Positions 3,130 through 63,302 of a DNA stretch of 64,000 nucleotides are shown one piece after another; position 1 is the stretch's first letter; each line of letters starts with the position of its first letter. Source of the DNA: a virus; the IMG/VR virus record IMGVR_UViG_3300032116_000065, positions 37,319-101,318 of that record; one strand, 5' to 3'. Made by a program: the position numbers and the translations under genes. The notes below the pieces were generated by a model that had not been told where the DNA came from, did not search any database, and worked only from the letters and a program-made list of their open reading frames with translations.

Positions 3130-3744
3130 TTAGTTATAGATCTGCCCCACCTCGAGAGCAGTTAGATTCTCTTCCGAACCTATTAATCCTTTTGCAAAAG
3201 TATTAAACGAAAGACTGACACGAGTTTGTTCGGCTTGTACTACATTTACTGAGTGTCTTAGCGAGGAAGGAAAAATCACTAATCTTCCTTGAGTGGCTTC
3301 TAACCACCAAGTTTTTGAATTGTAGAGATTGAAATTATCTGTCGGAAAGGAAATCTGATCATAATGATTTTTTTCAAAGTAAATTCGATCTTTTGAATTA
3401 TCTGTTTGCACATAGAAAACACCAGAAAGAAATGAGTTTGGATGCTCATGTGCATGATGCCATTGCCCTGGTTTACTATAATTAACCCAAGACTGCGTGA
3501 TATACAAATTTACATCTTTTGATGGTGCAACAACTTCCTGAAAATAGGTATCAATGGAAGTCTGAATAAAAGCGCGGAGATCTTTAAGTTCTTCTTTTCG
3601 AAGAATAAATCTATCCGCGCTTGTTGTATTGCCCATGTTGGGCTTCATTTCAAGATCTAATAGAGCACCTTTCTCAATTTCAGTTAAATCTCGACCCAGA
3701 TGAAACATTCCAACCGCAGTCGGAAATAATGATATAATTTGCAT
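3130..3744 (-). CDS. 2OG-Fe(II) oxygenase (first copy)
   Basis: A 204-residue protein of the double-stranded beta-helix dioxygenases that use 2-oxoglutarate, O2 and Fe(II). The metal and cosubstrate pattern is visible: HEHPNSFLSGVFYV (His99 and His101), then IFPSSLRHSV (His164) and RVSLSFN (Arg175, the usual 2-oxoglutarate anchor). It resembles the phage and marine-bacterial putative 2OG-Fe(II) oxygenase family (PF13759-like). The substrate is unknown. It lies inside the tail-fibre block, and a second copy is at 6597-7169. Hydroxylation of a fibre protein is a tempting inference (see findings); action on a small molecule or nucleic acid is equally open. Confidence 0.85.
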   Translation of the reverse strand: MQIISLFPTAVGMFHLGRDLTEIEKGALLDLEMKPNMGNTTSADRFILRKEELKDLRAFIQTSIDTYFQEVVAPSKDVNLYITQSWVNYSKPGQWHHAHEHPNSFLSGVFYVQTDNSKDRIYFEKNHYDQISFPTDNFNLYNSKTWWLEATQGRLVIFPSSLRHSVNVVQAEQTRVSLSFNTFAKGLIGSEENLTALEVGQIYN

Positions 3745-58131: not shown

Positions 58132-58336
58132 TGTGCATTTCCTCATAAAGAACAAACGAAACTTCTTCGCGAACCGCAGTGTCGCTGGCTTCCTCGAAAC
58201 CTTTGACCTTGCTGAGTTTCTCCAACATCTGCAATACTTCTATCCAACAGATATCAAGCAGATGTGCTGTAGTAACAATATTGTGGACTGCAGCATTGCC
58301 TTCGTCCGTGAACATTCCATAGTAGGGAGTTTTCAT
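58121..58336 (-). CDS. Hypothetical protein, 71 residues
   Basis: MKTPYYGMFTDEGNAAVHNI with VTTAHLLDICWIEVLQMLEK, a soluble helical acidic protein ending YEEMHNAS. One-base overlap with the next gene (TAATG). Unrecognised. Confidence 0.6.
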   Translation of the reverse strand: MKTPYYGMFTDEGNAAVHNIVTTAHLLDICWIEVLQMLEKLSKVKGFEEASDTAVREEVSFVLYEEMHNAS

Positions 58337-58593
58337 TAGGCAATCACCTGCACGCGAGGCTCAACATTAGCGAGATCATCAAAGAAATGATTGCCAGGAA
58401 GCGGAGCGTAGAATTCTTCGCGCGGGAAGGAGAGATCAACCTTACCCTGCCAAACACGCTTGGCAGTCTCAGCGCAAAAAGTGCCGTTTTTATAAACGGC
58501 GACAACCACGCCAATGCGATAGCAATCATTATGACCAACGAAGTCAAGAGACTTGACGACGTCACCAATTTTCACAGTGTTTTCACATTTCAT
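58336..58593 (-). CDS. Hypothetical early protein with a leaderless-type promoter
   Basis: An 85-residue protein (MKCENTVKIGDVVKSLDFVG; SH3-like barrel pattern: NDCYRIGVVVAVYKNGTFCA). Start at 58593 because a promoter's TATAAT box lies 6 nt before it, and there is no SD. Longer frames would start inside the promoter. C-terminal end ANVEPRVQVIA. Function unknown; an early gene by its promoter. Confidence 0.65.
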   Translation of the reverse strand: MKCENTVKIGDVVKSLDFVGHNDCYRIGVVVAVYKNGTFCAETAKRVWQGKVDLSFPREEFYAPLPGNHFFDDLANVEPRVQVIA

Positions 58594-58599
58594 AAGACT

Positions 58600-58628
58600 A
58601 TTATAACATTTCCTAGCGTAAAACACAA
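58600..58628 (-). promoter_or_regulatory. Sigma70-type early promoter, first copy
   Basis: On the minus strand: -35 TTGTGT (58623-58628), 17-nt spacer, -10 TATAAT (58600-58605, perfect), then 6 nt to the ATG at 58593. The start site is therefore predicted at or within 1-2 nt of the start codon, i.e. a leaderless or near-leaderless mRNA, consistent with no Shine-Dalgarno sequence. The identical geometry recurs at 59065-59093. An 18-nt repeat lies 15 nt upstream of the -35. Confidence 0.6.
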
Positions 58629-58643
58629 CAGGAAAAAGTCGAA

Positions 58644-58661
58644 TAAAATCAATAACTTACG
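58644..58661 (-). repeat. 18-nt direct repeat, copy 1 (upstream of early promoter)
   Basis: TAAAATCAATAACTTACG on the plus strand, identical to 59110-59127. It lies 15 nt upstream of the -35 box of the first promoter (on the minus strand) and covers the last codons of the 60-residue gene. See the second copy for the shared geometry. Confidence 0.7.
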
Positions 58662-58831
58662 AGCACCTCTCGGAAGGCTTCTTTGGCTTCCTCGAAGGAT
58701 GTATTTTCCAGGGAGATTTTGTTGCCTGTCGAACGACACTCGATTTCGTAACAGTAATTCCCTGTGTGCCAGAGCGTATGGCGATTGCCAAACTTGTCGT
58801 TTTGCGCATCGATGAAATGGTAGAATTTCAC
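58649..58831 (-). CDS. Hypothetical protein, 60 residues
   Basis: MKFYHFIDAQNDKFGNRHTL with WHTGNYCYEIECRSTGNKIS: a beta-strand-rich, acidic small protein ending EVLVSY. Its 3' end contains one copy of the 18-nt repeat. Overlaps the 76-residue gene by four bases. Unrecognised. Confidence 0.6.
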   Translation of the reverse strand: MKFYHFIDAQNDKFGNRHTLWHTGNYCYEIECRSTGNKISLENTSFEEAKEAFREVLVSY

Positions 58832-59058
58832 TGCTGATCCTCCGTGGGATACGGACCTGTGTAATTGTCCCAGTTATCCATGATGTATTCTAGCACCTCA
58901 GACTGAAATGCGCCTAATTCACTGAGTGACGCATTGTCGTAGTCTGGGTCTGTTGGCCAGTCGAATCCGAGGCGCATTGCGTCGAATTTTAGACTTTTAA
59001 TTGAAGTGATTGTGGCTAACCTATACGCCGCTGGGTTTTTTTCAATTTCATGTATCAT
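58828..59058 (-). CDS. Hypothetical early protein with a leaderless-type promoter
   Basis: A 76-residue protein (MIHEIEKNPAAYRLATITSI, then DWPTDPDYDNASLSELGAFQ), acidic, unrecognised. Its start has no Shine-Dalgarno but a -35/-10 pair ending 6 nt before the ATG (see promoter). Confidence 0.63.
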   Translation of the reverse strand: MIHEIEKNPAAYRLATITSIKSLKFDAMRLGFDWPTDPDYDNASLSELGAFQSEVLEYIMDNWDNYTGPYPTEDQQ

Positions 59059-59064
59059 ACAACA

Positions 59065-59093
59065 ATTATCGTATAAAACACTCGAATTTACAA
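59065..59093 (-). promoter_or_regulatory. Sigma70-type early promoter, second copy
   Basis: Minus strand: -35 TTGTAA (59088-59093), 17-nt spacer, -10 GATAAT (59065-59070), 6 nt to the ATG at 59058, with the same 18-nt repeat 16 nt upstream of the -35. Weaker -10 than the first copy but otherwise the same arrangement. It predicts a leaderless mRNA for the 76-residue gene. Confidence 0.55.
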
Positions 59094-59109
59094 CAGAAGA
59101 ATTTCTTGT

Positions 59110-59127
59110 AAAATCAATAACTTACGT
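59110..59127 (-). repeat. 18-nt direct repeat, copy 2 (upstream of early promoter)
   Basis: TAAAATCAATAACTTACG, identical to 58644-58661. It lies 16 nt upstream of the -35 (copy 1: 15 nt). Unlike copy 1 it is not within a gene; it may be the end of a lost duplicate, or a regulatory site. Confidence 0.7.
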
Positions 59128-61193: not shown

Positions 61194-61574
61194 TCAATCA
61201 CCCTTATATAATTGTTTCTTCATCGCGGTGATCTGGTCGTCAGAAAGGATCTTTAATGCTTCCTCTGCTTTCGCATCGGAGTATCCATAGTATTCTTTAA
61301 CAACACTCAAATCACTACTTTGAGCCTTTTTATGCCATTTAGAGTATGGTCGCTTAGAGGCTCTAACAATATTTAGGAGAAAATCATATTTGAGTTTATT
61401 ATCGAGAGTCGTGTATCGATTCATTTCGTTCGCTAATAGAACGGTGTCTCTATGAAAAGAAAGAGCACGATTGACCATAAAAGATGAGTATGACTTTTCA
61501 TCCTGTTCTGTCAGAAGAGCATACTGCTTCGTCTGTAGAATAGACGGAATAATTTCTTTAAAGAGGTCAGCCAT
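61194..61574 (-). CDS. 62: Clamp loader small subunit gp62
   Basis: A 126-residue gp62 (T4: about 187), with SFMVNRALSFHRDTVLLANE, NIVRASKRPYSKWHKKAQSS and VVKEYYGYSDAKAEEALKIL. It forms the clamp loader with gp44. Its start overlaps the end of the inserted homing endonuclease gene by 8 nt, so translation probably couples to that gene. Confidence 0.88.
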   Translation of the reverse strand: MADLFKEIIPSILQTKQYALLTEQDEKSYSSFMVNRALSFHRDTVLLANEMNRYTTLDNKLKYDFLLNIVRASKRPYSKWHKKAQSSDLSVVKEYYGYSDAKAEEALKILSDDQITAMKKQLYKGD

Positions 61575-62370
61575 TGAAAGGTTCGCCTAATTGTGATTTT
61601 CTTTTACGCTGTTCTTCTGCATGCCGTTTTCTTCCTTCAATAAGTTTTTCAATTGCTTCTGGATGATTTTTAATATATTCTTTTCTATCGTAAGATCTCT
61701 TCACCAGCATTTCTGGATTATTCATATAATATTCTTTCATTGCAATAGAAGATTTTACTGCTCTATTTGTGTTATTTTTTGATGGGTGTTTTTCTGGATT
61801 ATTTTTATAATACTCTTTTTTTGCAGCAGATATTTCCTGTTTCTTTTCTGGATTATTTCTATAATATGCCTTCATTGAATTAGACATTTTATTGCGAACT
61901 TCGGGTCTTTTTGCGGGATTATTTTTACCAGAAAATAATTTTTGCATTTTCTCTTTATGCTTATTGGCAATACCAGGATTACGCATTGGATTACAATTTG
62001 GATCTTTTTTTAACCTTTCAGTTTGCGAAAAAGACAATTTACTGCGAACTTCTGTTCTTTTTGTTGGATTATTATCCCCAATAAAAGCATCAGACATTTT
62101 TTTTCTTAACCAACCATATAGTTTATTATTTCTAGATTCACCGATGGTCATCATGGATGCAGCATATAACAAACTATAATTTTCTGGATAAATTTTTAAT
62201 AGTAATTGATGGGCAACATAATGCTCTTCAGCAGTTAGATCTACCAGATTGGTCGGATCGTCATTTCCACCCATGCATCTTGGAATGATGTGGTGCGTCT
62301 CGCAATAACCCTCAAGCAATCTATTTTTTGCTCTGTTTATCAGAGCATCATAATGCTTTTGGTAGTTCAT
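61567..62370 (-). mobile_element. HNH homing endonuclease gene between gp44 and gp62
   Basis: A 267-residue protein (start 62370; overlaps the gp44 stop by four bases). HNH site: ETHHIIPRCMGGNDDPTNLV and HYVAHQLLLKIYPENYSLLY. The C-terminal half has four tandem (K/R)EYYxNNPE-type units (YYRNNPE, YYKNNPE, YYMNNPE, YIKNHPE) that likely contact DNA. In T4 several intercistronic homing endonucleases occupy comparable positions; this gene separates two genes normally adjacent, an independent gain. It is intact, with no inactivating change seen. Confidence 0.88.
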
Positions 62371-63302
62371 GAGAACTTGCACTCCACCATCATCTCTGTA
62401 AGACATGCGGTGAGGTTCAGTTCCTGATCTGCGACAAATGCTGATTGATATTGATACTTTGCGAGAATCAAAACTGCATTTGGAATCGTGGACTTATCCA
62501 TAACTTCATAAAGACTGTCATAGATCTTACGATAAATCTTCGCAGGATCGTCGCTACCAAAATCAGCAACCCACTTACGCATTGCACTGAAGTTTTGATC
62601 TTTGAGTGATGCAACCAATTCAGTCAATGAAACATCAGCAATACTGGAAAGAATCCCAGCATCAATCTTACCGCTGACAGAATATCTTTGGAGTTCGTTT
62701 AGAACACGACGATAGTCAGGGAAGTGCTTCTTGACAACTTCAGCCAGTACTGCTTTATCATACGGCACCTTTTCAGTTGCGAGGATTTCAGCAGCACGCT
62801 TCATAAACGCCATTGCCATCTTGGGTTTATCTTCCTTGCGTAGTTTGAATTCAATCACAGCGCAGCGAGAATGCAATGGCTCAATGATACGGTTCTTGTA
62901 GTTACAAGTCATGATGAAGGTGCAGTTATGCGCAAACTCTTCCATTGCAGCACGCATGGCTGGTTGAGTTGAGTTTGGATTTAGATAATCTGCTTCGTCG
63001 ATAATGATGACTTTTTTACCGCCACCAAGAGACATTGCACTCGCATAGTTCTTGATCTTTGTTCGAAACGTATCAATACCACTCTCATCCGACCCGTTGA
63101 TCATCAAATAGTCGCAACCAATCTCATCACACAGCGCTCTTGCAACTGTAGTCTTGCCAGTGCCAGGTCCACCGCAGAGAAGGAGATGAGGAATCTCCTT
63201 GCGATCTACATACGACTGAAAAGTGGACTTGTATTCCTCTGGAAGGATACAATCGGCAATAGTATGAGGACGGTATTTTTCAACCCACAATGCTTCAACC
63301 AT
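62367..63302 (-). CDS. 44: Clamp loader large subunit gp44
   Basis: A 311-residue AAA+ ATPase: VEKYRPHTIADCILPEEY, Walker A GGPGTGKT (44-51), Walker B KVIIIDEADYLNPNSTQPAM, SRC arginine-finger region (PLHSRCAVIEF) and a helical C-terminus. Loads the sliding clamp with gp62. The start lies 50 nt from the Tat-signal gene, with an SD. Confidence 0.94.
   Translation of the reverse strand: MVEALWVEKYRPHTIADCILPEEYKSTFQSYVDRKEIPHLLLCGGPGTGKTTVARALCDEIGCDYLMINGSDESGIDTFRTKIKNYASAMSLGGGKKVIIIDEADYLNPNSTQPAMRAAMEEFAHNCTFIMTCNYKNRIIEPLHSRCAVIEFKLRKEDKPKMAMAFMKRAAEILATEKVPYDKAVLAEVVKKHFPDYRRVLNELQRYSVSGKIDAGILSSIADVSLTELVASLKDQNFSAMRKWVADFGSDDPAKIYRKIYDSLYEVMDKSTIPNAVLILAKYQYQSAFVADQELNLTACLTEMMVECKFS

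What the first reader, a model, noticed from the sequence alone, without database searches (positions are those of the whole stretch)
58594..59127. Two early promoters with identical geometry, a shared 18-nt upstream element and predicted leaderless mRNAs
Seen in sequence: at 58600-58628 and 59065-59093 there is a -35 box, a spacer of exactly 17 nt, a -10 box (TATAAT; GATAAT) and exactly 6 nt before the ATG. The same 18-nt word lies 15 and 16 nt upstream of each -35. No Shine-Dalgarno sequence precedes either start. Known: transcripts start about 7 nt after the -10, so both mRNAs would begin at or beside their AUG. Inference: a matched pair of early promoters with a common activator or host-factor site, made for leaderless translation early in infection. 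This arrangement is not something I know from T4-like phages.
Basis: partly seen in the sequence, partly recalled or inferred. Interest (0 to 1): 0.8.

Follow-up and report, generated by a model that had tools for sequence, protein, structure and literature searches.

The report
IHF-site phage promoters fused to AUG
An uncultured T4-like phage and its relatives reuse one ready-made promoter unit: a site matching the host DNA-bending protein IHF, a host-type promoter at an exact distance, and, in most copies, the gene's start codon sitting on the predicted first base of the RNA, so that translation would begin without a leader.

Summary
Both starts have a -35, a 17-nt spacer, a -10 and 6 nt before ATG; the shared 18-mer lies exactly 15 nt upstream of both -35 boxes (not 15 and 16). 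It is not a pair: the 101-kb record has six copies, and the module recurs in dozens of uncultured IMG/VR contigs. A matrix for the downstream half (T-tract to start) found 101 distinct modules in 2.28 Mb; 100 carry YAANNNNTTGATT 53-55 bp upstream of the -10. That is the IHF consensus (WATCAANNNNTTR) on the other strand, and 53 of 54 substituted sites lie at IHF-degenerate positions. Of 56 sequence clusters, 39 put ATG 6-7 nt after the -10 and open at least 47 codons; about 15 drive Shine-Dalgarno-led genes or tRNA arrays. Best reading: a strong host-sigma70 phage promoter assisted by host IHF, with the start codon usually merged into the transcription start. Leaderless translation is likely at these two genes but is not what the promoter exists for. 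IHF binding, early timing and 5' ends are inferred, not shown. No full copy was found in cultured phages.

The parts
59112..59124 (-). Copy A upstream core TAAGTTATTGATT (inside the 18-mer 59109-59126): candidate IHF site
   Evidence: YAANNNNTTGATW match; conserved at 53-55 bp from the -10 in 100 of 101 modules; changes confined to Y and NNNN
59088..59093 (-). Copy A -35 TTGTAA
59065..59070 (-). Copy A -10 GATAAT
58828..59058 (-). Gene behind copy A, 76 aa, unknown function; predicted transcription start at 59058, the A of ATG
   Evidence: ORF; 12 contigs with homologues have the same module upstream; 5' end not mapped
58647..58659 (-). Copy B upstream core TAAGTTATTGATT (inside the 18-mer 58644-58661): candidate IHF site
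   Evidence: as copy A
58633..58637 (-). Copy B T-tract between core and -35
   Evidence: T-tract starts 21-23 nt after the core start in most family members
58623..58628 (-). Copy B -35 TTGTGT
   Evidence: aligned
58600..58605 (-). Copy B -10 TATAAT
58336..58593 (-). Gene behind copy B, 85 aa, unknown function; predicted transcription start at 58593, the A of ATG
   Evidence: 41 related loci; 423 of 502 single-base codon differences at third positions over the first 25 codons; 5' end not mapped
58649..58831 (-). 60-aa ORF upstream of copy B whose TGA stop lies inside the core of copy B

Best explanation
This is a reusable promoter module of a group of uncultured T4-like phages. Shown by sequence: 5' to 3' it holds a 13-bp core YAANNNNTTGATT, a T-tract, a -35 (TTGNNN or TTTACA), a 17-bp spacer, a -10 and a T-A-T start region, with core and -10 locked 54 bp apart. 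Inferred: host RNA polymerase with sigma70 starts RNA at the A 7 nt after the -10. Host IHF binds core plus T-tract (about -70 to -36 by analogy with the lambda H' site, from memory), bends the DNA just upstream of the -35 and strengthens the promoter, as IHF does at lambda PL and Mu Pe. In about 70% of clusters the gene's AUG is placed on the initiating A, so the mRNA has no leader and would be translated through recognition of its 5' AUG. In the rest the same promoter drives a leader with SD, or a tRNA array. The genes behind it are small ORFans and tRNAs, which fits immediate-early expression.
For: Six copies in the record, each with the core at 54-55 bp from the -10. 100 of 101 distinct downstream modules in 2.28 Mb have YAANNNNTTGATT at 53-55 bp, 93 at exactly 54. 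In loci chosen by downstream protein, not by motif, 32 of 34 distinct upstreams have it at 65-66 nt from the ATG. A matrix trained without the test genomes finds 14 sites, 11 with the core, none in shuffles. 53 of 54 substituted sites fall at IHF-degenerate positions, Y changing only to C. T-tract at a fixed place. 39 of 56 clusters have ATG 6-7 nt after the -10 with at least 47 open codons. Coding from that ATG. T at -1, A at +1, T at +2 dominate, and most copies without a start codon there keep AT. IHF consensus: PMC7177045. The nearest PstS-bearing bacteria have IhfA-like genes.
Against: No binding, activity or 5'-end data. The NNNN positions are also well conserved (GTTA in 66 of 100), more than IHF needs, so shared descent or another protein is possible. 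Most loci were fetched through the motif. The matrix was trained on members of the same family; only the protein-selected loci are free of this. Distinct substitution types are few (8; P 0.007). The host is unknown. Effect of IHF (stimulation or repression) cannot be read from sequence.
Confidence: 0.6

Rival explanations
1. The upstream word binds a phage-encoded activator or an injected virion protein rather than IHF; the promoter is otherwise as described.
For: The central GTTA is more conserved than IHF requires. T4-like phages do modify and redirect host polymerase (PMC2988021). The module is absent from bacterial genomes.
Against: The pattern of change follows the IHF consensus, and a perfect match to a 13-bp host-factor consensus plus T-tract would be a coincidence. 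No candidate regulator was identified.
Confidence: 0.17
2. The conserved upstream stretch is only an UP element for the alpha-CTD of polymerase, as in other T4-like early promoters; no other protein is involved.
For: A+T-rich, at -66 to -39; T4-like early promoters carry such elements.
Against: The family consensus matches 7 of 15 specified UP positions and none of the proximal A-tract (UP consensus from memory). A+T-richness does not explain invariant TTGATT with free NNNN.
Confidence: 0.13
3. IHF binds but holds the promoter down (or silences it later in infection), rather than activating it.
For: The predicted footprint abuts the -35; IHF represses some promoters (established knowledge).
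Against: The rigid core to -10 distance (93 of 100 at 54) suggests cooperation with polymerase; simple occlusion would tolerate other spacings.
Confidence: 0.1
4. ATG at the start position is only the initiator of transcription; the genes are really translated from mRNAs that begin further upstream or from inner starts.
For: The 3206 copy has ATG AGT TGA there; AT is kept at +1/+2 in copies that are not gene starts.
Against: 39 of 41 clusters with ATG there open at least 47 codons (of the other two, one is a truncated contig). Third-position changes dominate from the first codons on. Several homologues lack any inner start near by.
Confidence: 0.1

Closest known systems
T4 and T4-like early promoters (Pe)
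   Same: Host sigma70-type promoters with extra conserved sequence upstream, before early genes, ORFans and tRNA genes (PMC2988021, PMC1524935)
   Different: Those show A-rich UP elements at -40 to -44; here a TTGATT core at -66 to -54 and a T-tract. IHF and leaderless starts are not mentioned in the T4 review
IHF-stimulated phage promoters lambda PL and Mu Pe
   Same: Host IHF site upstream of an early sigma70 promoter (cited in PMC1784095 and PMC3820752)
   Different: Those are single promoters of temperate phages; here the same site at one fixed distance recurs in many promoters of T4-like phages, closer to the -35 than the lambda PL site (the latter from memory)
Leaderless mRNAs such as lambda cI
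   Same: Predicted 5' end at the A of AUG, no SD, AUG rather than GUG in all 39 clusters; such initiation is described in PMC2268962
   Different: Here it is the usual state of a whole promoter class, and homologous genes switch between leaderless and SD-led forms
PeSL cassettes of T4-like phages (Arbiol 2010; Comeau 2014, cited in PMC4503421)
   Same: Near-identical promoters before unrelated genes and different promoters before the same gene
   Different: A stem-loop is not consistently present

Membership tests
Sigma70-type promoter | -35 and -10 hexamers with 16-18 nt between | tested here: met
   17 nt in both copies and nearly all members; -10 strong, -35 TTGNNN or TTTACA
IHF binding site | WATCAANNNNTTR | tested here: met
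   Full match in both copies and in 100 of 101 modules
IHF binding site | A/T-tract beside the core as in the lambda H' site (optional feature) | tested here: met
   T-run starts 21-23 nt from core start in 87 of 118 sites of the relaxed list; broken in copy A
IHF binding site | Binding and bending by IHF | not testable with these tools
   Needs gel shift or footprint
T4-like early promoter | A-rich UP element at about -40 to -44 | tested here: not met
   T-rich there; 7 of 15 UP positions match
T4-like early promoter | Active before phage protein synthesis | not testable with these tools
   No expression data
Leaderless gene | Start codon at the predicted transcription start, no SD | tested here: met
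   6 nt after the -10 in both copies
Leaderless gene | Mapped 5' end at the AUG | not testable with these tools
   Needs Cappable-seq or primer extension
PeSL cassette | Stem-loop joined to the early promoter | tested here: inconclusive
   Stem-loops in some upstreams, z from -1.3 to +0.4

The most novel reading that the evidence does not exclude
A T4-like phage group runs its host-takeover genes and tRNAs from a standard, exchangeable promoter cassette that depends on host IHF and in which transcription start and start codon are fused, so that early proteins are made from leaderless mRNAs without Shine-Dalgarno pairing.
Probability: 0.42. Interest if true: 0.75.

Novelty: new variant of a known kind. 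Interest (0 to 1): 0.6.

Why it matters
If right, it joins three things usually studied apart: a nucleoid protein as a built-in part of the promoters of T4-like phages, leaderless translation as the usual mode of a phage promoter class, and cassette-like spread of that unit through uncultured phages. It gives a sequence signature for finding such genes in metagenomes, and gene families whose members switch between leaderless and SD-led starts, a natural test of what leaderless translation is good for.

Tried and rejected
Nucleotide match of the region to cultured phages: none. The 77-nt consensus against cultured phages gave only chance-level partial hits; the Achromobacter and Agrobacterium phage hits share an IHF-like core and T-rich stretch, but I saw no -10 at the right distance. 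The pattern in the bacterial and archaeal genome collection gave 48 hits, none with the promoter, so it is not a host promoter family. Phage-encoded HU/IHF: none found. UP element alone: poor match. FNR/Anr box: only a TTGAT half-site, no inverted repeat (read from the sequence). PeSL stem-loop: not consistent. Host by PstS and porin: PstS up to 64% identical to a proteobacterial protein, porin only distant, host not named. Homologues of the gene behind the record-10303 promoter: none confirmed. Literature searches for leaderless T4-like or IHF-dependent phage promoter classes: nothing matching in the held library.

Full report
Check of the observation. The two promoters are on the minus strand as described. 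Copy A reads CGTAAGTTATTGATTTTA-15 nt-TTGTAA-17 nt-GATAAT-6 nt-ATG, copy B CGTAAGTTATTGATTTTA-15 nt-TTGTGT-17 nt-TATAAT-6 nt-ATG. Two 18-mer copies are not expected by chance.

The rest of the genome. The window is part of a 101,318-bp virus record. It is T4-like: gp44 up to 60% identical to that of marine cyanophages, the first 50 residues of UvsX 62% identical to RB49-type phages. The record holds five minus-strand copies of AGTTATTGATTTT (record 96440, 95975, 10355, 7233 and 3203), each followed by a promoter at the same distance. A matrix of the promoter half alone finds a sixth on the plus strand (-10 at record 10413), divergent from the 10355 copy, with core TAACCTATTGATT. The copy at 3203 stands before a tRNA array; its ATG is followed by AGT TGA, so ATG is not a gene start there. 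The 10355 copy has no ATG at the start position, and a leader with an SD-like GAAGGA.

Relatives. A pattern scan of IMG/VR gave 100 stretches with a match, most with the full module, some plainly chance. A 172,991-bp relative has eleven matches on one strand, none on the other and none with the reversed control pattern. A scan of 2.28 Mb with the downstream-half matrix gave 101 distinct modules, of which 100 have YAANNNNTTGATT at 53-55 bp from the -10, 93 at exactly 54. The exception has TAAGTGATTGAAT. Because those loci were mostly fetched through the motif, I repeated the test on loci chosen by homology of the downstream proteins: 32 of 34 distinct upstreams have the core at 65-66 nt from the ATG; the other two have a different promoter and a leader. 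A matrix trained without the two test genomes found 14 sites in them at or above its threshold, 11 with the core, and none in shuffles. Core and promoter thus form one unit. In two places of the 173-kb relative a second core lies 28 or 37 bp further upstream.

What the core is. TAAGTTATTGATT read on the other strand is AATCAATAACTTA, a full match to the IHF consensus WATCAANNNNTTR (PMC7177045). Across all modules 53 of 54 substituted sites lie at the Y and NNNN positions; Y changes only to C. By distinct substitution type this is 7 of 8, P 0.007. A T-tract usually follows, 21-23 nt from the core start, close to the place of the A-tract in the lambda H' site (from memory). No HU/IHF-type gene was found in ten phage records, so the host protein would be used. 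The host is not known; the PstS gene of the record is up to 64% identical to proteobacterial ones, and the five best of those genomes have IhfA-like genes. That IHF binds and stimulates is inference, by analogy with lambda PL and Mu Pe (cited in papers read).

Leaderless starts. In 56 clusters, 39 have ATG 6 (36) or 7 (3) nt after the -10 and open at least 47 codons; 11 are SD-led; 6 are other, including tRNA leaders and a truncated contig. All 39 use ATG, while three SD-led clusters use GTG with AATGGAG. Position -1 is mostly T, +1 A, +2 T, and most copies without a start codon there read ATA, which supports a transcription start at that A. Among homologues of gene B 423 of 502 single-base codon differences fall at third positions within the first 25 codons, so coding begins at this ATG. 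One gene family occurs in leaderless and in SD-led form (METRNYTFDENI and MTTQYTFDEDIL). Lack of SD alone proves little, since many long ORFs of this record lack one with unrefined starts.

Mobility. Near-identical promoters precede unrelated genes (MTYQENAAQQ and MRYHYIESKND), and identical gene starts follow different promoter versions (L206 and L218). This resembles the PeSL cassettes of T4-like phages (cited), but a stem-loop is not consistent.

Comparison and verdict. T4-like early promoters share strength, an extended consensus and positions before ORFans and tRNAs, but have A-rich UP elements rather than this core. No full module was found in 50,697 cultured-phage records or among 48 genome hits. 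I found no paper describing it in the held library, which lacks most subscription journals. I rate it a new variant of a known kind. Shown: the module, its rigid spacing, its spread, and coding from the ATG at the predicted start. Inferred: IHF binding, activation, early timing and 5' ends.

Noticed in passing
L006 3140-3095 (-); L170 1440-1385 (-); G001 about 7380: The leader of the phage tRNA array (GAGCGTCCTTCGCGATTGCTCTTGCTCTTTAAAA) looks like the hairpin plus boxA of rRNA antitermination leaders and is conserved in three phages, with a further conserved stretch before the first tRNA.
   Followed up: partly
L006 13348-13392 (-): COG2908 RNA (RF02939), above its gathering score, upstream of the PstS gene region.
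   Followed up: no
L006 10975-13039 (-): A porin gene (PF16930) next to a PstS phosphate-binding gene, both likely taken from a host; PstS is up to 64% identical to a proteobacterial protein.
   Followed up: partly
record 10303 and 10413 (L006): Two divergent copies of the module with facing, nearly abutting cores: a possible shared IHF control point.
   Followed up: partly
L158 1288-1331 and L175 1501-1552 (G001): Tandem cores 28 and 37 bp apart upstream of one promoter.
   Followed up: no
L006 about 10285-10255 (-); L161: A shared leader AAAGCCGCAAAC(C)ACGGC(G/A)AAGGA, a hairpin followed by an SD-like sequence, behind two of the non-leaderless copies.
   Followed up: no
window 58649-58831 (-): The stop codon of the ORF upstream of copy B is the TGA inside the IHF-like core; one stretch serves as coding end and promoter element.
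   Followed up: no
window 61567-62406 (-): ORF overlapping the end of gp44 with an HNH-like N-terminal region (ETHHIIPRCMGG), perhaps a homing endonuclease; not tested.
   Followed up: no
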